Shown here: in pieces, positions 1,567 to 31,616 of the stretch | Numbering within the stretch: the stretch's first letter is position 1 | Layout: the number at the start of each line of letters is the position of its first letter | IMG/VR virus record: IMGVR_UViG_3300044994_000194 | Span: 1 to 31,616 of that record | Source: a virus | Length of the DNA stretch: 31,616 nucleotides | Reading direction: 5' to 3' (one strand) | Notes under the pieces: generated by a model | The model's input: the letters and a program-made list of their open reading frames with translations, nothing else | Told to the model about the DNA's origin: nothing | The model's database searches: none | Made by a program: the position numbers and the translations under genes

Positions 1567-3158
1567 GCTTCTTCCCAGCGAGGAACGATGGGGAGACTAC
1601 CGCGTGCGGGAGGTTCGTCTTCCGCAATGCCCTCGCGGCTCACGCGGAGGCGTTCTTCGAGCGGTATCTTCGGCACTCGAAGGGCGAATGGGCCGGTCGT
1701 CTCTTCGTCCTCTCCCCGTGGCAACGTTGGATCGTCCGCGAACTCTTCGGGTGGGTCAGGGTCGACAACGGCACGCGAAGATACCGGACGGCGTACATCG
1801 AGATCCCGCGAAAGAACGGCAAGTCGACCTTCTCGGCGGGGCTGGCGCTCTACCTCACGCTGTGCGACGACGAACCTGGCGCGGAGGTCTACTCGGCCGC
1901 CGGCGACAAGGACCAGGCGTCGATCGTGTTCAAAGAGGCGGCGGAGATGGTTCGTCAATGCCGCGAACTCCACGAGCTTTGCGAAGTCCAGACGAAGGCG
2001 ATCGTCGTCCCTGGGACGACCTCGGTCTACCGCGTTCTCTCGTCCGAGGCGTTTACGAAGCACGGGTTGAACGCTCACGGGATCGTCTTCGACGAGCTGC
2101 ACGCGCAACCGAACCGTGAACTGTGGGACGTCCTGACGACCTCCGTCGGATCGCGCCGACAACCGATGACGATCGCGATCACGACGGCGGGGTACGACCG
2201 GGAGTCAATCTGCTACGAGCTGCACCTGTACGCTGAAAGGGTCCGCGACGGGATCGTCGACGACCCGACCTTCCTCGCCGTCATCTTCGCGGCGGATCCG
2301 TCGGACGACTGGACGAAGCCCGAGACGTGGGAGAAGGCGAACCCGAACCTCGGGATCTCGATCTCTCACGAATACCTAGCGGCGGAGTGCAGAAAGGCCC
2401 AGGAGACGCCGGGGTACGAGAACACGTTCAAGCGGCTCCACCTGAACCTGTGGACGGAGCAGGACACGCGATGGATCTCGATTCGGGCGTGGGACGCGAA
2501 CGCCCTCGAAGTCGCGGACGAGTCGTCGCTCCGCGGGCGTCGGTGCTACGTCGGACTCGACCTCTCGACGACGACGGACATCGCGGCGGCGGTCCGCGTC
2601 TACCCGAGGGACGACGGGACGTTCGACGTCATCCCGAAGTTCTACGTTCCGGCGGAGAACGCGGCGAAGAGGGAGCGAAAGGACCGAGTTCCTTACCCGC
2701 TTTGGATACGACAGGGATGGATCATCGCGACCCCCGGGAACGTCATCGACTACGACTTCATCAAGTCTGACCTTCTCGCGCTCGCGAAGGTTGCCGACCT
2801 GAGGGAAATCGCGTACGACCCGTGGTCGGCGACACAGATCGCGCTTCAACTCGAAGCCGACGGGGCGACGTGCGTTCCGTTCCGCCAGGGCTTCGCGTCG
2901 ATGTCCGAACCTTCAAAGACCTTCGAGAAGTTGATCCTGGGAGGGAAGATCCGCCACGGGAACAACCCGGTCCTCCGCTGGATGGTCTCGAACGTCGCGA
3001 TCGAGATCGACCCCGCCGGGAACATCAAGCCATCGAAGAAGCGATCGACGGAGAGGATCGACGGGGTCGTCGGGTGCATCATGGCCTTGGGGCGCGCTAC
3101 TCTTCCCAGCGAGAATGGCCCGTCCGTGTACCAGAAACGAGGCTTGGTCACGATATGA
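1563..3158 (+). CDS. terL: Terminase large subunit
   Basis: A 531-residue packaging motor of the HK97-like Terminase_1 group, a usual length for the family. The ATPase half carries the Walker A region PRKNGKS at 82-88 and Walker B VFDE ending at D177-E178. The nuclease half starts near 325 with YVGLDLSTTTD, where D333 is the likely first metal ligand of the RNase H-like fold; EIAYDPWSA follows. It cuts concatemers and pumps DNA through the portal. The start is GTG 1563, overlapping the terS stop. The end overlaps the portal start in ATGA, showing tight coupling of the packaging genes. Confidence 0.95.
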   Translation: MSFFPARNDGETTACGRFVFRNALAAHAEAFFERYLRHSKGEWAGRLFVLSPWQRWIVRELFGWVRVDNGTRRYRTAYIEIPRKNGKSTFSAGLALYLTLCDDEPGAEVYSAAGDKDQASIVFKEAAEMVRQCRELHELCEVQTKAIVVPGTTSVYRVLSSEAFTKHGLNAHGIVFDELHAQPNRELWDVLTTSVGSRRQPMTIAITTAGYDRESICYELHLYAERVRDGIVDDPTFLAVIFAADPSDDWTKPETWEKANPNLGISISHEYLAAECRKAQETPGYENTFKRLHLNLWTEQDTRWISIRAWDANALEVADESSLRGRRCYVGLDLSTTTDIAAAVRVYPRDDGTFDVIPKFYVPAENAAKRERKDRVPYPLWIRQGWIIATPGNVIDYDFIKSDLLALAKVADLREIAYDPWSATQIALQLEADGATCVPFRQGFASMSEPSKTFEKLILGGKIRHGNNPVLRWMVSNVAIEIDPAGNIKPSKKRSTERIDGVVGCIMALGRATLPSENGPSVYQKRGLVTI

Positions 3159-4915
3159 AGAACCTTCTCTCGACCATCTCGCGCCGATTCCTCTCCCGCG
3201 CTGGGGGGTCAGAACGTCGCGCGACCTCGATCGGCGGCGGCTCAATCTCTGATCCTCCGGGGTGGCTCGAACGTCTGCTGCTCGGAAACAGGGACGTCGA
3301 GGATGTTCCGGTCGAGATCGACGAACGGAACGCGCTCGCGATTCCGGCGGTCTTCGCGTGCGTACGGGCGATCTCCGAGGACGTCGCGAAGTTGCCGATC
3401 CACGTCTACCGGCAGACGGAGACCGGGAAGGAGCGGCTCCGCAACCATCCTCTGGCGAGGCTTGTTCGCGGTCTTCCGAACCCACACATGTCATGGTTCG
3501 ACCTCGCGTCGGCGACGACTGCCCACGCGCTGACGTGGGGGAATGGCTACGTGGAGATCGTCCGCGATGGGAACAACCGCCCATCCGAGCTCTGGCCTCT
3601 TGAACCAGACCGCGTCGAGGTCCGCCGATCAACCGTCAAGCCGGAAGAGATCGTCTACATCTACAACGACCCGGCGCTCGGGAAGAGGCGGACGATCTTC
3701 GACGTCGACGTCCTCCACATCAAGGGTCTCGGCTACGACGGTCTCGTCGGCTACTCGGTCATCGGCTGGGCGCGGAGGTCTCTGGCGCTGACGGCTGCGG
3801 CGGAGAAGTTCGGTTCGTCCTTCTTCGGCAACTCGTCTCTTCCGAAGGGCGTCCTTGAACACCCCGGCGTCCTCGGCGATGAGGCTCAGAAGAACCTCCG
3901 CGAATCGTGGGAGAAGATCCATCGTGGGGTCGGGAACTACGGTCGGGTCGCGATCCTCGAAGAGGGGATGAAGTTCAACTCGATCACGATCCCGCCAGAT
4001 GACGCTCAGTTTTTGGAGACCCGGCAGTTCCAGATCCCCGAGATCTGCCGCTGGTTCCGCATGCCGCCGCACAAGATCGCCGACCTCACTCGCGCGACGT
4101 TCTCGAACATCGAACACTCGTCGATCGAGTACGTCGGGGACACGCTTCTCCCGTGGTTCGTTCGATGGGAGCAGGAGATCCGCAGGAAGTGCTTCACCGG
4201 CGGGGAAGGGAACCTCTTCGTCGAGTTCGTCACGGCGGCGCTGCTTCGAGGCGACCTGAAGTCTCGATACGACGCCTACGCGATCGGTCGTCAGTGGGGA
4301 TGGCTGAGTCCGAACGACGTCCGCGAGTTCGAGAACCTCAACCCGATCGAAAGCGAAGGCGGGGCTATCTACCTCGTTCCGGCGAACATGGCGAACGCCG
4401 ACGTCTTCGCGAAGGCGAAGGAACCCCAGGCCCCCCCGACGCCCCCGACGCCTCCTCCTGGCGGCGACGACGCGATGCCTTCGCCCGTACCAGCGACGAC
4501 CCGCGCCTATCGTGATCTCGTCGTCGAGGCGGTCTCACGCCTGCGGAGAGTCGAGGGCGACAAGATCTCGCGTCACGCGAAGAGAGACGACTCGTTCGCG
4601 TGGATGTCTCAGTTCGTTGCGAACCAACGCGCGGTGGCGGAGGCGGAGTTCAGGCCCCTCGCGATCGCGTACATTGGTTCGGCCCCCGGACGACCACCGA
4701 CCTTCGACTATCTCTCCGAGGCTCGAATCCTCGCTGAGGATCTCGGCGGCGATCACGCGGCCAGGCTCGCGAAAGTAGTATTTTCGGGCAACTGGACGGC
4801 GGACGTCGAGAGGCGCTCTCTCGCGTGGACGGAGGACGTGACGGACGAAGTCGACGCGATCATCGCTCGGATGGAGTCGATCGTCGCGCGGCGCATCGCG
4901 GAGAACTGGCAATGA
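3155..4915 (+). CDS. Portal protein with C-terminal extension
   Basis: A 586-residue protein. Residues 1 to about 420 are an HK97-type portal: NALAIPAVFACVRAISEDVA near the N-terminus, then IHVYR, LTWGNGYVEI, the hallmark FFGNSSLPKGVLEHPG and FRMPPHKIADLT. The ring of portals forms the DNA entry vertex and docks terminase and connector. A proline-rich linker (about 426-440) leads to an extra domain of roughly 145 residues, charged and helical, ending in EDVTDEVDAIIARMESIVAR. Most HK97-type portals are about 400-430 residues, so this is clearly longer. The extension could be a minor head or scaffold-like module fused to the portal. Start and stop overlap neighbours by ATGA. Confidence 0.93.
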   Translation: MKNLLSTISRRFLSRAGGSERRATSIGGGSISDPPGWLERLLLGNRDVEDVPVEIDERNALAIPAVFACVRAISEDVAKLPIHVYRQTETGKERLRNHPLARLVRGLPNPHMSWFDLASATTAHALTWGNGYVEIVRDGNNRPSELWPLEPDRVEVRRSTVKPEEIVYIYNDPALGKRRTIFDVDVLHIKGLGYDGLVGYSVIGWARRSLALTAAAEKFGSSFFGNSSLPKGVLEHPGVLGDEAQKNLRESWEKIHRGVGNYGRVAILEEGMKFNSITIPPDDAQFLETRQFQIPEICRWFRMPPHKIADLTRATFSNIEHSSIEYVGDTLLPWFVRWEQEIRRKCFTGGEGNLFVEFVTAALLRGDLKSRYDAYAIGRQWGWLSPNDVREFENLNPIESEGGAIYLVPANMANADVFAKAKEPQAPPTPPTPPPGGDDAMPSPVPATTRAYRDLVVEAVSRLRRVEGDKISRHAKRDDSFAWMSQFVANQRAVAEAEFRPLAIAYIGSAPGRPPTFDYLSEARILAEDLGGDHAARLAKVVFSGNWTADVERRSLAWTEDVTDEVDAIIARMESIVARRIAENWQ

Positions 4916-23239: not shown

Positions 23240-23278
23240 AAAAAACAACCCGCGCCATCCCCGGAGGGACGGCGCGGG
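23240..23278 (-). terminator. Rho-independent terminator of the LRV-repeat operon
   Basis: On the minus strand an eight-pair stem (CCCGCGCC/GGCGCGGG, 23249-23256 and 23271-23278) extends inward with a TCCC/GGGA helix and a CGGA loop. It is followed by TTGTTTTTTG. This is a textbook intrinsic terminator, 55 bases after the stop of the last repeat gene. Confidence 0.85.
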
Positions 23279-23332
23279 CAGGAGAGGAGAGAGAACCGGA
23301 TGATTCTAGCCCCGGAGGATCGGGTCGAGGAT

Positions 23333-24103
23333 TTAGGGGGCGGCGAGGCGCACGGTCCAGTGCGCGTCCGTCATCGCGCGCTCGCGCTGCTCGGGCGACA
23401 GATTGCCGAGTCCGACGGCGGCGGAACGCACGTACCAGTGAGAATCCGTCAACGCCCGCTCATGCTGATCGGGACTCAGACCGCCGAGTCCGACGGCGGC
23501 AGCACGCACGGCCCAGTGCTCATCAGTCAAGGCCCGCTCAAGCTGCGCGGGCGTGAGATTGCCCAGTCGGGCGGCGTCGGAACGCACGTACTCGCTCGCG
23601 TCCGTCAACGCCCTTTCACGCTGCTCTTGGGTCAGGTCGCCCAGCCTGACGGCGGCGGCCCGCACGTACTCGCTCGCGTCCGTCATGGCCCGCTCGTGCT
23701 GATCGGGACTCAGACCTCCGAGTCCGACGGCGGCGAGGCGCACGCCCCAGTCATCATCAGTCATAGCCCGCTCATGCTGATCGGGACTCAGACCTCCGAG
23801 TCCGACGGCGGCGGAACGCACGTACCAGTGAGAATCCGTCAACGCCCGCTCGTGCTGATCGGGACTCAGACCTCCGAGTCCGACGGCGGCGGAACGCACG
23901 CACCATTCAGCATCCGTCAGGGCCCGCTCATGCTGATCGGGCGACAGGCCGCCCAGTCTGACGGCGGAGGCCCGCACGCACTCGCTCGCGTCCGTCAACG
24001 CCCGCTCATGCTGCTCGGGCGACAGGCCGCCACATTCGACGGCTTCGGCACGCACTTCCCAGTCATCAGCAGTCAGGCGTTGCTCTTGCTCACGTGCGCT
24101 CAT
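23333..24103 (-). CDS. LRV/HEAT-like repeat protein A, ten 26-residue repeats
   Basis: A 256-residue protein built almost wholly from ten 26-residue units of the form ALTDxxWxVRxAAVxLGGLSPDQHER. The D-x5-VR-x-AAV signature and the length fit leucine-rich-repeat-variant or HEAT-like solenoids, which usually bind protein. Variable residues sit between TD and VR: ASEC, AEWC, SHWY, DDWG, ASEY, EHWA, AHWT. Repeats 4 and 9 share SHWYVRSAAVGLG, pointing to recent duplication. AAAGGAG six bases before ATG 24103 fixes the start; an ATG two codons earlier abuts the ribosome site. The last unit is truncated (LAAP). It is the distal gene of a three-gene operon. Function is unknown; host-protein binding or decoy is inference. 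Confidence 0.82.
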   Translation of the reverse strand: MSAREQEQRLTADDWEVRAEAVECGGLSPEQHERALTDASECVRASAVRLGGLSPDQHERALTDAEWCVRSAAVGLGGLSPDQHERALTDSHWYVRSAAVGLGGLSPDQHERAMTDDDWGVRLAAVGLGGLSPDQHERAMTDASEYVRAAAVRLGDLTQEQRERALTDASEYVRSDAARLGNLTPAQLERALTDEHWAVRAAAVGLGGLSPDQHERALTDSHWYVRSAAVGLGNLSPEQRERAMTDAHWTVRLAAP

Positions 24104-24194
24104 GTCCATCTCCTTTCGTCCCGGCGACCAGCCGGATCGGGTCGGCCGTCGGGCCGACATCATCGTCGCGCGATCGCTCAATCTGGCCACTCAT
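24090..24194 (-). CDS. Possible mini-gene coupled between repeat genes
   Basis: Thirty-four residues beginning MSGQIERSRDDDVGPTADPI, ending GHERT. The start overlaps the stop of repeat gene B in ATGA, with GGAAGGAG at a good distance, and the end overlaps the start of gene A by 14 bases. Strong ribosome-site placement argues for translation, perhaps only to couple A to B. Nothing in the peptide is recognisable. Evidence is limited to layout. Confidence 0.4.
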   Translation of the reverse strand: MSGQIERSRDDDVGPTADPIRLVAGTKGDGHERT

Positions 24195-24823
24195 GGCATA
24201 CTCCTTCCGGCGGCGGCGGCCCGCACGTACTCGCTCTCATCAGTTAGCGCGCGCTCGTGCTGGGCTTCGCTCAGACCGCCCAGTCTGACGGCGGCGATGC
24301 GCACTTGCCAGGCAAGATCCGTCAACGCCCGCTCATGCTGATCGGGACTCAGACCGCCGAGTCCGACGGCGGCAGCACGCACGTACCAGTGCGCGTCCTT
24401 CAGCGCGCGCTCATGCTGATCGGGCGACAGATTGCGGAGTCTGACGGCTTCGGCACGCACGGTATCGCTCGTGTCCGTCAGAGCCCGCTCATGCTGATCG
24501 GGACTCAGACCGCCGAGCCTGACGGCGGCAGCACGCACGGCCCACTCACGATCCGTCAACGCCCGCTCGTGCTGATCGCGCGTCAGACCGCCCAGTCTGA
24601 CGGCGGCGAGGCGCACGACCCACTGAGCATCCTTCAACGCCCGCTCGTGCTGATCGCGCGTCAGACCGCCCAGTCTGACGGCGGCGATGCGCACTTGCCA
24701 GGCACGATCCGCAAGCGCCCGCTCGCGCTGCTCGGGGCTCAGGCCGCCCTTCCTGACGGCGGCAAAGCGCACGTACCAGTCATCAGCAGTCAGGCGTTGC
24801 TCTTGCTCACGTGCGCTCATCAT
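24191..24823 (-). CDS. LRV/HEAT-like repeat protein B, eight 26-residue repeats
   Basis: A 210-residue paralogue of protein A with eight units. It shares the N-terminal cap SAREQEQRLTADDW, then carries units such as ALKDAQWVVRLAAVRLGGLT and ALTDREWAVRAAAVRLGGLS. Positions between D and VR differ from those of A (RAWQ, AQWV, REWA, TSDT, AHWY, LAWQ, ESEY). The C-terminus ends abruptly in AAAAGRSMP, as if a repeat was cut and the downstream ribosome site reused. AAAGGAG six bases upstream of ATG 24823 fixes the start. It lies 20 bases after gene C. Same fold and likely role as A. Confidence 0.82.
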   Translation of the reverse strand: MMSAREQEQRLTADDWYVRFAAVRKGGLSPEQRERALADRAWQVRIAAVRLGGLTRDQHERALKDAQWVVRLAAVRLGGLTRDQHERALTDREWAVRAAAVRLGGLSPDQHERALTDTSDTVRAEAVRLRNLSPDQHERALKDAHWYVRAAAVGLGGLSPDQHERALTDLAWQVRIAAVRLGGLSEAQHERALTDESEYVRAAAAGRSMP

Positions 24824-24843
24824 TGCCTTCTCCTTTCGCTTCG

Positions 24844-25248
24844 TTACCGCCGCTCGGTGCGGGCGGCTTCCCGCACTTCCCAGTCCTCATCTCTCAGCGC
24901 CCGCTCGCGCTGCTCGGGGGTCAGGCCGCCATCCATGACGGCGGCGAGGCGTACGGACCAGTGCTCATCAAGCAGCGCCCGCTCGCGCTGCGCGGGCGTC
25001 AGGCCGCCCTTCCTGGCGGCGGCGAGGCGCACGCGCCAGTCATCATCAGTCAACGCCCGTTCACGCTGCGCGGGCGTCAGGCCGCCCTTCCTGACGGCGG
25101 CGGCACGCACATACCGGTCACGATCCGTAAGCGCCCGCTCGCGCTGCTCGGGGGTCAGGCCGCCCTTCATGACGGCGGCAAAGCGCACGTACCAGTCATC
25201 GGCAGTCAGGCGTTGCTCTTTCGTTGTCCTCTCAATGGTGCTCATCAT
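24844..25248 (-). CDS. LRV/HEAT-like repeat protein C, five 26-residue repeats
   Basis: A 134-residue paralogue, promoter-proximal in the operon. After a short distinct start (MMSTIERTTK) it has the shared cap EQRLTADDWYVRFAAV, then five units of the form ALTDDDWRVRLAAARKGGLT, with Lys replacing Leu before GG and PAQRER or PEQRER at the end. AAAGGAG five bases before ATG 25248 fixes the start. The sigma70-like promoter at 25313-25341 lies directly upstream, with a leader of about 60 bases. Together with B and A it forms a paralogue ladder of 5, 8 and 10 repeats. Confidence 0.82.
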   Translation of the reverse strand: MMSTIERTTKEQRLTADDWYVRFAAVMKGGLTPEQRERALTDRDRYVRAAAVRKGGLTPAQRERALTDDDWRVRLAAARKGGLTPAQRERALLDEHWSVRLAAVMDGGLTPEQRERALRDEDWEVREAARTERR

Positions 25249-25312
25249 TTCGTCTCCTTTCTCAGCCGCCCCATCGCGGTTTCTTCGCCGGGATGGTCCC
25301 GGCAACGAGACT

Positions 25313-25341
25313 ATTATCGCCCGGACCACCCCCCGCGTCAA
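25313..25341 (-). promoter_or_regulatory. Sigma70-like promoter of the LRV-repeat operon
   Basis: On the minus strand TTGACG (25341 to 25336) and GATAAT (25318 to 25313) are separated by exactly 17 bases, close to the bacterial consensus. Transcription would start near 25306 and reach gene C at 25248. A-tracts lie just upstream. Confidence 0.75.
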
Positions 25342-25351
25342 CAGTGATTTC

Positions 25352-25378
25352 CCAAAAAATCCAAAAAATCCAAAAAAT
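25352..25378. repeat. Three tandem CCAAAAAAT units (A-tract, UP-like)
   Basis: The nine-base unit CCAAAAAAT occurs three times in a row at 25352, 25361 and 25370, in otherwise GC-rich DNA. It lies about 10-37 bases upstream of the -35 box of the repeat operon, where UP elements act, and may also serve the divergent direction or bend DNA. Confidence 0.6.
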
Positions 25379-25391
25379 CCATCCAAACATC

Positions 25392-25422
25392 TAGACTCCG
25401 CCCAAGATTCACCCGATACTAT
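25392..25422 (+). promoter_or_regulatory. Weak promoter candidate for the rightward early genes
   Basis: TAGACT (25392-25397) and TACTAT (25417-25422) each match four of six consensus bases, with a long 19-base spacer. It lies in the divergent gap and would start transcripts about 40 bases before ATG 25471. Support is modest. Confidence 0.3.
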
Positions 25423-25470
25423 CGTCTGTGGCACGGTTCCGGAGATCGGACCGAAGAATAGGAGTCACCC

Positions 25471-27175: not shown

Positions 27176-28885
27176 ATGGCAACCGTGCGAGTCTGCCACA
27201 ATGGTCTTCGTATCGTCGTCGAGTCGCCGTTCGCGTACAAAGACGCGGTCGCTTCCGTACCCACGAGAGAGTGGGATCCGAAGAATCGCGTGTGGCACTT
27301 CGAACCGTATCCCTGGGTCGCGTTACGGCTCGTCGGCGAGATCTCGCGTGTCGCGGGGACGATCGGAGACGACGTGCATGTCGACGACCGCGTCAGATTG
27401 CTCTCGTCGCGGGCGGTCGCGGTTGACACCGCGTCCGGTCCTCTCCTGGACATCAGATTCCACAGGCAAGCTGGATCGAAGCTCACCCCCTGGCGACACC
27501 AGTTCATCGGATCGCGGCTCATCCGAAACCTCGACGCGGTCTACCTCGCGTGGGAAATGGGGACAGGCAAAACGAAGGCTGTCATCGACGCGATCCTCGA
27601 CCTCCACTCGTCGGGACCAAGAAAGGTCCTCATCGTCTGCCCGGTGCCCGTGGTCGATGTGTGGGAGATGGAGTTCGCGAAGCACGTCGAGGACTCAGAC
27701 ACGCGGTTCGTCATCGCGGCGTCTCGACACCGGGCGATGAAGAAGCGCGTTGAGGCGGCGGAGTGCGCCATCGAAAGGGCGGCGGAGACTGGGAGAACGG
27801 CGGTCGTGGTCGTGAACTACGAGTCCTTCGTCCTCGACGGATCGCCGATGCTTCGATTCGCGGAGAACACCAGGTGGAGCCTTCTCGTCGCGGACGAGGC
27901 GCACCGAATGGCGAACCCCGGCTCGAAGACGTCGCGGGCGCTGACATCCAGAATCGGACCGCGATCGGAGAAGCGGGTCTGCCTCTCCGGCACGCCGATG
28001 AGGAATACTCCGCTCGACCTGTATTCGCAGTGCAAGTTCCTGGACCCGGGAATCTTCGGATCGAACCAGCGGCGGTTCCTTGAGCGGTACGCGGTCCTCG
28101 ACTTCTTCGGGAACGTCGTCGGTTTACAGAACACGGCAGAACTCGCGGAGAGGTTCGGTCTCATCGCCTACAGGATCGACAAGAGGACTGTCATCCGTGA
28201 TCTCCCGCCGGTGACTCCGTTCAGGGACCGGATCAGGCGATTCGACCTCTCGGAAGAGGCGATGAAGATCTACAAGACCTTCGAATCTGAACTGGTCGTC
28301 GCGGTCGGTCGCGGGGAGCTGAAGGCGTCGAACTCACTCGTGCAACTTCTCCGGTCACAACAAATGACCTCCGGGTTCGTTCCGATTGACGACGACGCGG
28401 AGGGGAACGGTCGGATCGAGGAAATCGACTCGGGGAAGCGCGATGAGGCGGGGGAGATCCTCGACGAGATCGTCGATACCGAACCAGTCGTCTTCTTCTG
28501 CCGATTTCGGCGTGATCTCGACACGGTCGCGAACCTCGCGAAGGAGCGCGGACGGCGATACTTCGAGTTGTCCGGTCGTGTGAACGAGCTCCGGGCGTGG
28601 CAGCAAGACACCTCAGGATCTGTCATCGGTATCCAGATCCAGTCCGGCGGCGTCGGCGTCGACGCGACCAGGGCGTCCTACGCGGTCTTCTACTCGGTCG
28701 GCTTCTCGTTGTCTGACTACGAGCAGGCGGTCTCTCGGCTCGATCGCCCGGGCCAGAAGAATCCGGTGACGGTCGTCAACCTTGTCGCGAGGGGGACGGT
28801 TGACGAAGCTGTCTTCGGGTCGATTGGGGCGAAGGGGAACGTCGTCGAGGGCGTCCTCGACTATTTACGCAGCAAGATTCGTTGA
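27176..28885 (+). CDS. SNF2-type DNA helicase/translocase
   Basis: A 569-residue superfamily-2 ATPase. The N-terminal 110 residues contain VPTREWDPKNRVWHFEP, similar to a HARP-like DNA-fork-binding segment. Motif I is WEMGTGKT at 126-133, motif II DEAH at 240-243, motif III SGTPM at 271-275, motif V SGGVGVDAT and motif VI QAVSRLDRPGQ at 517-527, typical of SNF2 proteins that move on double-stranded DNA. In phages these are thought to help remodel forks or displace bound proteins. GAAGGAAG at 27163-27170 supports ATG 27176 rather than GTG 27161, which would overlap the ribosome site. Confidence 0.9.
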   Translation: MATVRVCHNGLRIVVESPFAYKDAVASVPTREWDPKNRVWHFEPYPWVALRLVGEISRVAGTIGDDVHVDDRVRLLSSRAVAVDTASGPLLDIRFHRQAGSKLTPWRHQFIGSRLIRNLDAVYLAWEMGTGKTKAVIDAILDLHSSGPRKVLIVCPVPVVDVWEMEFAKHVEDSDTRFVIAASRHRAMKKRVEAAECAIERAAETGRTAVVVVNYESFVLDGSPMLRFAENTRWSLLVADEAHRMANPGSKTSRALTSRIGPRSEKRVCLSGTPMRNTPLDLYSQCKFLDPGIFGSNQRRFLERYAVLDFFGNVVGLQNTAELAERFGLIAYRIDKRTVIRDLPPVTPFRDRIRRFDLSEEAMKIYKTFESELVVAVGRGELKASNSLVQLLRSQQMTSGFVPIDDDAEGNGRIEEIDSGKRDEAGEILDEIVDTEPVVFFCRFRRDLDTVANLAKERGRRYFELSGRVNELRAWQQDTSGSVIGIQIQSGGVGVDATRASYAVFYSVGFSLSDYEQAVSRLDRPGQKNPVTVVNLVARGTVDEAVFGSIGAKGNVVEGVLDYLRSKIR

Positions 28886-28902
28886 CGAAAGGAGTACGTG
28901 GA

Positions 28903-29673
28903 ATGAACGAAGATCGAACCGGTCCGGGACTGACGGACGAAGATCCGTTCGTCCGATACGACGCCGTCTGTGCCGGCGGCCTGGACCCAGCCCAGCACGA
29001 GCGGGCGCTCACCGACGACCACCCGATCGTTCGCCGCGCTGCGGTCTACGCCTGTGGACTGAGCGAATCCCAGCACGAGCGGGCGCTCACTGATGATCAT
29101 TGGATTGTCCGAGCCGCAGCCGCGAGGATTGGTGGGATGAGCGAAGCTCAACTGGACCGTGCGCTCTGCGACAAGTTCCCGTTTGTTCGAATCCCCGCGA
29201 TCGCCGCGGGTAGTCTCCGCGACGATCAATGGGAGATGATGCTGACGGACCCGGACATGTTCGTCCGACGCGCGGCAACCGTTTTCTGCCGTCTGACAGA
29301 CTCGCAACGACAGCGCGCCAAGAACGACGACGACGGCTATGTTCGCCTCGCCGCTGAGTTCTCGGAGAAGTACGGAGGCGTGCCCGTCGTGCCCGACATC
29401 GACGCGGCGATCCTGGCGGCGATCACCGACGGCGGAGGGCTCGACATGAAAAAATGGCACTGCGGGACGACGCACTGCCGGGCAGGGTGGGCGATCCACC
29501 TCGCCGGCGAAGCGGGGTACGAGCTCAAACGGCTCATCGGTCCGCTCGAAGCCGGCGCGGCGATCTACCGACGGTCTCGGCCCGGGAAGAGGATTCCGAA
29601 CTTCTTCGCGCCGCGTCAAGCCGCGCTCGAAGACATACGACGGTGCGCGGCCAGCGCAGGAGGTGCGGCGTGA
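28903..29673 (+). CDS. LRV-like repeat protein D with Cys/His C-terminal domain
   Basis: A 256-residue protein. Residues about 10-165 are six diverged 26-residue units of the same kind as proteins A-C (ALTDDHPIVRRAAVYACGLS, ALTDDHWIVRAAAARIGGMS), with QHERAL conserved in the first ones. The C-terminal 90 residues differ: WHCGTTHCRAGWAIHLAGEA (185-204) and a later SRPGKRIPNFFAP, a pattern I have seen in phage and bacterial proteins of unknown function. C187, H191 and C192 could bind metal. AAAGGAG at 28888-28894 supports ATG 28903. Its stop overlaps the next start in GTGA. It shows the repeat family is older in this phage than the operon alone suggests. Confidence 0.78.
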   Translation: MNEDRTGPGLTDEDPFVRYDAVCAGGLDPAQHERALTDDHPIVRRAAVYACGLSESQHERALTDDHWIVRAAAARIGGMSEAQLDRALCDKFPFVRIPAIAAGSLRDDQWEMMLTDPDMFVRRAATVFCRLTDSQRQRAKNDDDGYVRLAAEFSEKYGGVPVVPDIDAAILAAITDGGGLDMKKWHCGTTHCRAGWAIHLAGEAGYELKRLIGPLEAGAAIYRRSRPGKRIPNFFAPRQAALEDIRRCAASAGGAA

Positions 29674-29972
29674 GCACCGACGATCGAACGCACGGCGTGC
29701 GGCGGAGCATTGCGGTCATGCTCGTGCGCCACGGGCTGTGCCCGACTCAAGCGAGCGCGAGAACGGCGGTCGATGTGGTCATTTCGGAGATCGCCCGAAT
29801 CGCCGTCGCGGGCGACCCCGTCGAGGTCAGGGGTCTCGGAGTCTTCAGGCGGCACGAGCTCCCGGCGAGGACCCTCCGGAATCCGAGGACCGGCGAAACC
29901 GTGGAGGTCCCGGCGTCGTGGATTGTCAGGTTCAGGCCTGGGAAGTACCTTCGCGGGCGGATTGAAAAATAA
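29670..29972 (+). CDS. HU/IHF-like DNA-binding protein
   Basis: A 100-residue histone-like protein. Two N-terminal helices (VRRSIAVMLVRHG, AVDVVISEIARIAVAGDP) lead to VEVRGLGVFRRHELPARTLR, RNPRTGETVEVPA and VRFRPGKYLRGRIEK, the standard HU/IHF beta arms with the conserved NPRTGE. It bends DNA and may assist packaging, replication or recombination. The start is GTG 29670, overlapping the previous stop, with AGGAGG at 29658-29663; upstream in-frame ATGs lie inside another gene. Confidence 0.88.
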   Translation: MSTDDRTHGVRRSIAVMLVRHGLCPTQASARTAVDVVISEIARIAVAGDPVEVRGLGVFRRHELPARTLRNPRTGETVEVPASWIVRFRPGKYLRGRIEK

Positions 29973-30084: not shown

Positions 30085-30723
30085 ATGAAGACCGTTGAGA
30101 TCGCATCGCCGAACTTCGCGACGATCGTCTTCCCCATCGTGGGGACCACCCCGTACTGCCAGAACAAGATGACCGCGTCGTCGCGCAAGAAGATGCGAGA
30201 CGCGATGACCGACGGCCAGAAGTCGAGCTCGAAGCGGAAGAGGGAGCCTCGGGACTTCGACCGCGACTTCGAGGAGACCACGCGGAGGACCGCCGACGGC
30301 AAGTACGGGATCCCCGCCCCGGCGTTCAGGCAGGCGATGGTGCGGGCGTGCGACACCGTCGGCTTCAAGATGACCCGCGCGAAGATGTCGGTCTTCATCG
30401 TCGCCGACGGCTACGACCAGGACGACGGGATGCCGCTCGTCGTCTTCACGAAGGGCGAGCCGAAGAAGATGGAGCACGTCGTGACCAACGCGAACGGGAG
30501 CGCCGACATCCGCGCCCGTCCGTTCTGGGAGCCGGGCTGGAAGGCTTCCGTGCGCGTCCGCTACGACGCCGACCAGTTCTCGCCGGAAGACGTCACCAAT
30601 CTTCTCGCGCGTGCCGGAGCGCAGGTCGGCATCGGCGCGGGGAGGGCGTTCAGCCCGAACTCGGCGGGGATGGGGTGGGGACATTTCGAGATCGAGGCGA
30701 CGGCGAAGAAGGGAGCGAAGTGA
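30085..30723 (+). CDS. Phage early protein of unknown function
   Basis: A 212-residue protein. It has FATIVFPIVGTTPYCQNKMT near the start, a basic middle (SSSKRKREPRDFDRDF), YGIPAPAFRQAMVRACDTVG, then FWEPGWKASVRVRYDADQFS and VGIGAGRAFSPNSAGMGWGH. The closing W-PGW...LL..AG...GIG pattern is familiar from uncharacterised phage early-region proteins, but I cannot assign a function. AAAGGAAG at 30072-30079 supports ATG 30085. Its stop overlaps the next start in TGATG, so the two are probably made together. Confidence 0.62.
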   Translation: MKTVEIASPNFATIVFPIVGTTPYCQNKMTASSRKKMRDAMTDGQKSSSKRKREPRDFDRDFEETTRRTADGKYGIPAPAFRQAMVRACDTVGFKMTRAKMSVFIVADGYDQDDGMPLVVFTKGEPKKMEHVVTNANGSADIRARPFWEPGWKASVRVRYDADQFSPEDVTNLLARAGAQVGIGAGRAFSPNSAGMGWGHFEIEATAKKGAK

Positions 30724-31190
30724 TGAAGAAGGCATCGGTCCGATCAGAACTCGAATTCATCCGCCGGATGAACGGCGGCGTCCTCCGCCCGAAGGACGTG
30801 GTCGACTTCGCTCGTGACGAGAGCACCGCTCTCCACGCGAGGTTCGACTGGGACGACTCGTCGGCGGCGGAGAAGTACCGGCTCGAACAGGCGCGGATGC
30901 TCATTCGCTTCGAGGTCCGGATCATCGACGAGAAAAGGGTCCCGGCGTACTTCTCGTTCGCCGAGGACCGCAGAGTCGGGGATTCGTACCGGGCGGTCGT
31001 GGAGATCATGCGCGACGATGAGCTCCGAGAGAAGATGATCGCCCAGGCGCTCCGCGAAGCGCAGGTGTGGGCGAAGCGGTACGAGCGGTTCTGCGAGTTG
31101 CGGACAATCGTCGCGGAGATCGGTCGGGTGATCACTATCCAGGCTCTCGGGAAAAAGAAGAAGAAGAAGAAGTCCAGACTCGCTGAATGA
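30723..31190 (+). CDS. Conserved-type phage protein with lysine-rich tail
   Basis: A 155-residue protein. It starts with GGVLRPKDVVDFARDESTAL, then HARFDWDDSSAAEKYRLEQA and RMLIRFEVRIID, a pattern that recurs in uncharacterised phage proteins; function is unknown. The middle is beta then helical (AQALREAQVWAKRYERFCEL). The end has seven Lys in a row from an AAG tract at about 31151-31172, then SRLAE; this tract could mediate nucleic-acid binding or be prone to slippage. It overlaps the previous stop and ends four bases before the repeat array. Confidence 0.62.
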   Translation: MKKASVRSELEFIRRMNGGVLRPKDVVDFARDESTALHARFDWDDSSAAEKYRLEQARMLIRFEVRIIDEKRVPAYFSFAEDRRVGDSYRAVVEIMRDDELREKMIAQALREAQVWAKRYERFCELRTIVAEIGRVITIQALGKKKKKKKSRLAE

Positions 31191-31194
31191 TCGT

Positions 31195-31616
31195 GGATTT
31201 CGGACCCGGAGCAATCCGGGGCGTGGCGAGGCGGGGCTCGGCGCGGCGTGGCAAGGCGAGGCAAGAGCGCGGCTCCCCCCGACCTCCGAGAGGAGGTCGG
31301 GTGGGATTTCGGACCCGGAGCAATCCGGGGCGCGGCGAGGCAGGGCTTGGCGCGGCGTGGCGCGGCTGGGCGAGGCTCGAGCGCGGCTCCCTCCGACCTC
31401 CGAGAGGAGGTCGAGGGGGATTTCGGACCCGGAGCAATCCGGGGCGTGGCGAGGCAAGGCTTGACGAGGCAAGGCCCGAGCGCGGCTCCCTCCGACCTCC
31501 GAGAGGAGGTCGGGTGGGATTTCGGACCCGGGGAGACCCGGGGCGAGGCCGGGCACGGCTCGGCAAGGCGGGGCGCGGCTCGAGCGCGGCTCCCTCCGAC
31601 CTCCGAGAGGAGGTCG
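31195..31616 (+). repeat. Tandem structured repeat array with GGCNN pentamers; possible ncRNA
   Basis: Four units begin at 31195, 31304, 31418 and 31517; the last is cut by the window end. Each has GGATTTCGGA, hairpin A (CCCGGA-GCAA-TCCGGG in units 1-3), a row of GGCNN pentamers, GAGCGCGGCTCCCTC (one base differs in unit 1) and hairpin B (CGACCTCC-GAGA-GGAGGTCG). Pentamers number 9, 10, 7 and 8. Unit lengths of 109, 114 and 99 bases equal 64 plus five per pentamer. Hairpin A of unit 4 is CCCGGG-GAGA-CCCGGG, a paired change with another GNRA loop. A 109-base step shifts reading frame, so coding is unlikely. The array begins four bases after a stop codon and is probably co-transcribed. Role unknown. 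Confidence 0.85.

What the first reader, a model, noticed from the sequence alone, without database searches (positions are those of the whole stretch)
31195..31616. Tandem repeat array whose unit length changes in five-base steps
Every unit has a constant 64-base core with two GNRA-loop hairpins plus 9, 10, 7 or 8 copies of GGCNN; unit lengths of 109, 114 and 99 fit 64+5n exactly. GGC is held while NN varies, with some columns alike between units (second pentamer mostly GGCGA, fourth GGCTY). Stem conservation with loop and pentamer variation points to a structured RNA or a protein-binding array rather than simple junk DNA. I know of no described phage element with this design; short tandem repeats of other unit lengths are known elsewhere.
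Basis: partly seen in the sequence, partly recalled or inferred. Interest (0 to 1): 0.8.

Follow-up and report, generated by a model that had tools for sequence, protein, structure and literature searches.

The report
Phage guide-RNA array (VIPR system)
The repeat is a set of guide RNAs from a phage-encoded, CRISPR-like VIPR system, in which the variable letter pairs between constant GGC triplets probably spell out which rival virus's DNA to switch off; it is a good new example of a kind first described in a 2026 preprint.

Summary
Window 31195-31616 holds four units of 109, 114, 99 and at least 100 bases: a 64-base spacer with two GNRA hairpins, alternating with 9, 10, 7 and 8 GGCNN pentamers. 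It starts 4 bases after a two-gene operon on the same strand. The first gene (30085-30723) is a relative of Vipr, an ancestral CRISPR-type RAMP protein: a profile of its family matches the solved SUSP1 Vipr chain at E=5e-41, and its own clade alone at 5e-7. The array is therefore a vrRNA (guide) array of a Viral Interference Programmable Repeat system (PMC13142463, 2026 preprint), in which GGY is scaffold and the NN pairs specify a target with one skipped base. Scanning IMG/VR for (GGCNN)8 by DNA alone, 85 of 120 loci carry this protein, against 2 of 120 in a period-6 control; 360 of 367 runs lie on its strand. The 5n length rule is guide length. Particular here are the accessory gene (not detectably SUSP1's vap1) and discrete hairpin-bounded units, in a clade whose relatives mostly use run-on arrays punctuated by GGCAGGC. 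No target was found. Transcription and function are inferred. In passing: some VIPR arrays are punctuated by tRNA-like minihelices.

The parts
30085..30723 (+). vipr: RAMP-fold protein (212 aa), relative of SUSP1 Vipr; phrog_4652
   Evidence: Family profile vs PDB 36pp_D 'SUSP1 Vipr protein' E=5.3e-41; window-clade-only profile E=5.4e-7; AF2 pLDDT 93, best Foldseek matches are Csm3/Cas7-type subunits, E~1e-5, prob 1.00; glycine-rich loop GIGAGRAFSPNSAGMGWG; phrog_4652 E=1.1e-13.
30723..31190 (+). accessory gene in the vap position (155 aa), phrog_15946; start overlaps the vipr stop (ATGA)
   Evidence: phrog_15946 E=3.3e-16. The same family adjoins Vipr in 55 of 113 tree rows, nearly all in one strongly supported clade. 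Not detectably related to SUSP1 vap1. AF2 pLDDT 95.8 but no significant PDB fold match (best E=0.25).
31195..31616 (+). vrRNA (guide RNA) array, four units, cut by the contig end
31220..31264 (+). guide 1: 9 GGCNN; NN = GT GA GG TC GC GT AA GA AA
31329..31378 (+). guide 2: 10 GGCNN; NN = GC GA AG TT GC GT GC TG GA TC
31443..31477 (+). guide 3: 7 pentamers, the fifth imperfect (GACGA); NN = GT GA AA TT GA AA CC
31542..31581 (+). guide 4: 8 GGCNN; NN = GA CG AC TC AA GG GC TC
31205..31220 (+). leader hairpin (GNRA, GCAA loop) before guide 1; copies at 31314-31329, 31428-31443 and 31527-31542 (the last with GAGA loop and one compensatory pair)
31274..31306 (+). tail hairpin (GAGA loop) after guide 1; copies at 31388-31420, 31487-31519 and 31591-31616 (cut by contig end)

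Best explanation
This is the guide-RNA array of a phage-encoded VIPR (Viral Interference Programmable Repeat) system. The phage makes a Vipr RAMP protein (30085-30723) and an accessory protein (30723-31190); the array starts 4 bases downstream and is probably transcribed with them and cut into units of about 100 nt. Each unit is a guide of 7-10 GGCNN pentamers bounded by a short GNRA hairpin at the 5' side and a longer GNRA hairpin at the 3' side (tail). Vipr subunits would coat the guide one per pentamer, holding GGC as scaffold, while the NN pairs base-pair with DNA of the form NNxNNxNN. The complex would sit on, and repress, DNA of a competing phage, prophage or satellite. Changing the number of pentamers changes guide length by five bases, which explains the 64+5n rule. 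Shown here: the repeat anatomy, homology of the adjacent protein to Vipr, its RAMP fold (predicted), and family-wide linkage and strand agreement. Inferred from the preprint's work on other members: transcription, RNP formation, the one-base-skip code and repression. Inferred without direct support: one subunit per pentamer, co-transcription with the operon, the processing route, and the target.
For: Profile of the window protein's family hits PDB 36pp_D 'SUSP1 Vipr protein' at E=5.3e-41; window clade alone 5.4e-7. AF2 model pLDDT 93 matches Csm3/Cas7-type RAMP subunits. Of 120 IMG/VR loci chosen only by the DNA pattern (GGCNN)8, 85 encode this protein; with a GGCNNN period-6 control, 2 of 120, and one of those two also has GGYNN tracts. 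360 of 367 pentamer runs lie on the strand of vipr, none inside it, G+C of loci 39-76%. Reverse test: 19 of 25 loci found by protein alone have a tract of at least 5 GGYNN on the gene strand, 0 on the other strand. Positive control: SUSP1 itself shows GGY/NN tracts flanking vipr-vap with the same tract finder. Published description of vipr + vap + vrRNA of GGY/NN repeats plus structured tail, copurification, one-base skip and phage repression: PMC13142463.
Against: No transcript, binding or target evidence for this phage. Exact one-skip targets of guides 1 and 2 are absent from IMG/VR; guide 4 and a shortened guide 1 give 5 hits each, scattered over unrelated genes and no more than chance. Guides of 7 and 8 pentamers are shorter than the 9-16 reported for SUSP1 and P. 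fulva, and guide 3 has one broken GGC. The accessory protein is not SUSP1's vap1. Six of 25 protein-found relatives lack a recognisable tract, though several loci are short or low in G+C. The preprint is recent and I could not read its supplement.
Confidence: 0.93

Rival explanations
1. The array is a Vipr-bound RNA but not a DNA-targeting guide: for example a decoy or a self-regulatory element that titrates Vipr or controls the operon.
For: Array lies directly behind its own operon; no target found in IMG/VR; one guide has a broken GGC and two are short.
Against: NN positions vary strongly between units and loci while GGY is held, as expected for guides; family members were shown to be programmable guides (PMC13142463). 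Natural targets can simply be missing from the database.
Confidence: 0.04
2. DNA-level binding array (iterons, replication origin or partition site) read by a phage protein as double-stranded DNA.
For: Tandem binding sites next to replication or partition genes are common in phages and plasmids (general knowledge).
Against: 360 of 367 runs share the strand of vipr, which a double-stranded site would not require; the adjacent protein has an RNA-binding RAMP fold; hairpins with GNRA loops point to RNA.
Confidence: 0.02
3. Protein-coding repeat: the open frame 31187 onward (ATG overlapping the preceding stop) is translated.
For: The frame is open to the contig end.
Against: Unit length 109 is not a multiple of 3, so the frame shifts from unit 1 to unit 2; steps are of 5, not 3; several frames are open on both strands because of G+C content.
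Confidence: 0.005
4. Assembly artefact or slippage at the contig end.
For: The contig ends inside the array; repeats often break assemblies.
Against: Units differ in guide sequence and length, and the arrangement recurs in more than 100 independent loci.
Confidence: 0.005

Closest known systems
VIPR system of Escherichia phage SUSP1 (type II; PMC13142463; PDB 36pp)
   Same: vipr + small accessory gene, vrRNA array on the same strand downstream, GGY/NN pentamers, structured elements between guides, units of about 100 nt.
   Different: Window uses GGC almost only (SUSP1 mostly GGT), 7-10 pentamers, GNRA hairpins in place of SUSP1's pseudoknotted tail, and an accessory protein of another family (phrog_15946) with no detectable similarity to vap1. 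Vipr lies in a separate clade.
VIPR loci of the window's own Vipr clade (Cyanophage Cy-LDV1, Rhodoplanes serenus phage-like plasmid NZ_LR026982, Bradyrhizobium L257, viral contigs L002/L003/L063)
   Same: Same vipr-vap pair (44-54% Vipr identity), GGC pentamers on the gene strand.
   Different: Most have run-on arrays in which guides join at GGCAGGC (a 4-base step) without hairpin spacers; the window array has no GGCAGGC and has discrete hairpin-bounded units.
Class 1 CRISPR-Cas effector backbone (Csm3/Cas7)
   Same: RAMP fold with glycine-rich loop, guide RNA with periodic unpaired positions.
   Different: No Cas genes or CRISPR repeats; 5-base rather than 6-base period; guide information in NN pairs only.

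Membership tests
VIPR | Vipr protein: small RAMP homologue with glycine-rich loop | tested here: met
   PDB 36pp_D E=5.3e-41 for the family profile, 5.4e-7 for the window clade; RAMP fold.
VIPR | GGY/NN tandem pentamers in an intergenic stretch next to vipr | tested here: met
   33 of 34 pentamers GGC.
VIPR | Minimal locus: vipr plus a vap gene | tested here: met
   Second gene overlaps vipr and co-occurs with it across the clade. Whether it is one of the named vap1-6 could not be checked (supplement not readable); not vap1 by sequence.
VIPR | Constant structured 3' tail after each guide | tested here: met
   64-base spacers, 97% identical, z=-3.78, two GNRA hairpins. Covariation inconclusive. 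The tail is not that of SUSP1.
VIPR | 9-16 pentamers per vrRNA (as reported for the SUSP1/P. fulva clades) | tested here: inconclusive
   Two guides have 9 and 10; two have 7 and 8. Across 328 tracts in Vipr loci most lie at 7-15, so the published range may be clade-specific.
VIPR | vrRNA transcribed and bound by Vipr | not testable with these tools
   Needs RNA-seq and pull-down.
VIPR | Targets follow the one-base-skip rule | tested here: inconclusive
   No exact target for guides 1 and 2 in IMG/VR; chance-level hits for guide 4 and shortened guide 1; local all-against-all test without power.
VIPR type II (SUSP1-like) | Groups with SUSP1 Vipr and carries vap1 | tested here: not met
   Window in a separate 42-row clade (support 100/99); vap not similar to vap1.
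CRISPR-Cas | cas genes and CRISPR repeat-spacer array | tested here: not met
   Neither protein has a Pfam family and there is no cas match in PADLOC-DB; the repeat is GGCNN pentamers with hairpin spacers, not a repeat-spacer array.
Hammerhead-interspersed or other known Rfam RNA | Match to an Rfam family | tested here: not met
   No match for the whole window at gathering cut-offs or for 31000-31616 at E<=1.

The most novel reading that the evidence does not exclude
A VIPR variant in which each guide is an autonomous hairpin-guide-hairpin unit closed by two GNRA tetraloops, arisen inside a Vipr clade that otherwise uses run-on GGCAGGC-punctuated arrays, so that guide punctuation has been invented repeatedly (GNRA hairpins here, tRNA-like minihelices, hammerheads and pseudoknots elsewhere).
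Probability: 0.4. Interest if true: 0.5.

Novelty: new member of a known kind. Interest (0 to 1): 0.45.

Why it matters
VIPR is proposed as a relative and forerunner of CRISPR effectors. This locus adds an uncultivated phage with a complete vipr-vap operon and at least four readable guides, from a clade apart from the one studied in the laboratory. It gives family-wide evidence independent of the preprint, from DNA pattern alone and with a control, that GGYNN arrays and Vipr belong together and on one strand. If the guides' targets are found they name the phage's competitors. The variety of punctuation between guides bears on how guide RNAs were first matured before CRISPR repeats.

Tried and rejected
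Known RNA families: none in Rfam, including permissive search of the array. Targets: exact one-skip patterns of guides 1 and 2 in IMG/VR, none; guide 4 and the first eight pairs of guide 1, five hits each in unrelated genes, mixed reading frames, chance level; within the window up to 3 mismatches for guides 1 and 2 and 2 for guide 4, none. Guide-side test of the skip rule: NN pairs resemble codon positions 1-2 more than 2-3 or 3-1 (KL 0.17 against 0.27 and 0.40), but no codon model beats a uniform one, so not used. All guides of the fetched loci against 2.2 Mb of fetched DNA at skips 0-3: background in all. Relatives carrying the window's tail hairpin: none in IMG/VR by exact 20-base pattern; array against phage records by distant blastn, none. 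Accessory protein: no Pfam or NCBIfam family, no significant fold match. Promoter between the genes and the array: no sigma-70-like site. Covariation of the window hairpins: too few variable units. Literature searches for pentamer repeats in phages before the Vipr lead gave nothing useful.

Full report
OBSERVATION. The array is as described. Units start at 31195, 31304, 31418 and 31517 and measure 109, 114, 99 and 100+ bases. Spacers between guide tracts are exactly 64 bases each, so unit length is 64+5n with n = 9, 10 and 7; the fourth tract has 8 and its unit is cut by the contig end. Only one pentamer of 34 breaks GGC (GACGA in unit 3). The pattern is far beyond chance. The hairpins are stable but hardly vary, so covariation cannot be judged. 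The window is a linear IMG/VR virus record of 31,616 bases.

SURROUNDINGS. The array starts 4 bases after the stop of a gene (30723-31190) whose start overlaps the stop of another (30085-30723). Both first matched only PHROG families of unknown function, phrog_15946 and phrog_4652. A distant relative of the first gene (L002, 47% identity) had GGCNN arrays on both sides of it, so the array and the gene were examined together.

LINKAGE. I scanned IMG/VR for the bare DNA pattern (GGCNN)8; the scan stopped at 120 stretches. With the profile of the 30085-30723 family, 85 of the 120 encode a member. In a control of equal size with period 6, (GGCNNN)8, 2 of 120 do; only 1 of the 120 control loci has a tract of at least 5 GGYNN, and it is one of those two. 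Of 367 pentamer runs in the linked loci, 360 lie on the strand of the gene, 265 downstream, 95 upstream, none inside. In reverse, 25 loci fetched by protein alone (24 genomes and one plasmid) gave 19 with a tract on the gene strand and none on the opposite strand. Cyanophage Cy-LDV1 and Mycobacterium and Gordonia phages with this gene also carry GGYNN tracts on its strand.

IDENTITY. The family profile hits one solved protein, 36pp_D 'SUSP1 Vipr protein', at 5.3e-41; the window's own clade alone gives 5.4e-7. The AF2 model (pLDDT 93) matches Csm3/Cas7-type CRISPR backbone subunits. The preprint PMC13142463 describes VIPR: a phage-encoded RAMP protein Vipr, a vap gene, and vrRNAs of 9-16 GGY/NN repeats with a structured tail, which recognise DNA through NN pairs with one skipped base and repress competing phages. 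SUSP1's own locus, run through the same tract finder, shows the expected arrays.

MECHANISM. Shown here: anatomy, homology, predicted fold, linkage and strand. Taken from the preprint for other members: transcription, RNP formation, the one-skip code, repression. Inferred for this phage: the operon and array are co-transcribed (4-base gap, no promoter-like site seen), the hairpins mark guide ends, and the guides aim at competing elements. Guides 1-3 resemble each other column by column, so the array probably grew by duplication of whole units followed by change in NN, mostly by transitions.

WHAT IS PARTICULAR. On a tree of 113 Vipr sequences the window lies in a 42-row clade (support 100/99) whose members nearly all carry the phrog_15946-type accessory gene; SUSP1 lies elsewhere. 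Most relatives in that clade use run-on arrays in which guides meet at GGCAGGC. The window array has no GGCAGGC and discrete hairpin-bounded units. The preprint names staggered and hammerhead-interspersed arrays; whether the GNRA-bounded form is in its supplement I could not check. I therefore file it as a new member, not a new kind.

LIMITS. No target found. No expression data. The preprint is not peer reviewed and its supplement was not readable here, so type and vap number are unassigned. The Vipr profile used for the 85/120 count includes sequences from those same loci; the first-pass search started from the window sequence alone, and the period-6 control used the same profile.

IN PASSING. 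In four VIPR loci (L022, L110, L096, L007) guides are bounded by tRNA-like minihelices: an acceptor-like stem of 5 or more pairs and a GGTTCGANNCC T-arm. Over 8 distinct copies 96% of cells pair, with 24 cells changed on both sides against 7.8 in shuffles (0 of 500 reach it). The copies were picked by a filter that asks for pairing, so the count leans towards the structure; the T-loop motif itself was found first by sequence alone. The preprint's main text does not mention tRNA. This suggests processing of vrRNAs by host tRNA enzymes.

Noticed in passing
L110 (minus strand, about 2956-3226 of the reversed locus), L022 (minus strand, 4262-4610 of the reversed locus), L096 1488-1820, L007 3780-3830: vrRNA guides bounded by tRNA-like minihelices (acceptor-like stem plus GGTTCGANNCC T-arm) with compensatory changes across copies; suggests maturation by RNase P/Z. 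Not mentioned in the VIPR preprint's main text.
   Followed up: partly
L002, L003, L124, L125, L130, L257 and other loci of the window's Vipr clade: Run-on GGCNN arrays in which guides end in GGCAGGC, a 4-base instead of 5-base step; probably the 'staggered' arrays of the preprint.
   Followed up: partly
window 23249-25434, minus strand: About 22 copies of a 78-base repeat coding a 26-residue HEAT-like unit (LTPEQRERALTDxDxYVRxAAVxxGG), in separate frames (23336-24190, 24194-24823, 24847-25434); Pfam HEAT E=1.3e-18. A further HEAT gene lies at 28882-29670 on the plus strand.
   Followed up: partly
328 GGYNN tracts in Vipr loci: First base of NN is a purine in 69% of 3,852 pentamers and TA is depleted (0.62 of expected), while the second base is even. 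May reflect targets in sense orientation or an RNA-binding preference.
   Followed up: partly
L004, L008, L070, L012 and about 30 other loci: (GGCNN)8 arrays without a detectable Vipr in the stretch held; 14 of 35 have the tract within 900 bases of an end. The rest may be orphan arrays, divergent Vipr, or simple repeats (L020, L084).
   Followed up: no
Mycobacterium phage Pippy gp48-49 (L125), Gordonia phages Pipp (L126) and ODay (L127), Cyanophage Cy-LDV1 (L124), Rhodoplanes serenus plasmid NZ_LR026982 (L130): Cultured or named elements with a Vipr relative, the same accessory family and GGY arrays, annotated as hypothetical proteins; laboratory-ready material for this clade.
   Followed up: partly
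window 29663-29965: Small gene that looks by eye like an HU/IHF-type DNA-binding protein, directly upstream of the vipr leader; no Pfam hit at 0.001.
   Followed up: no
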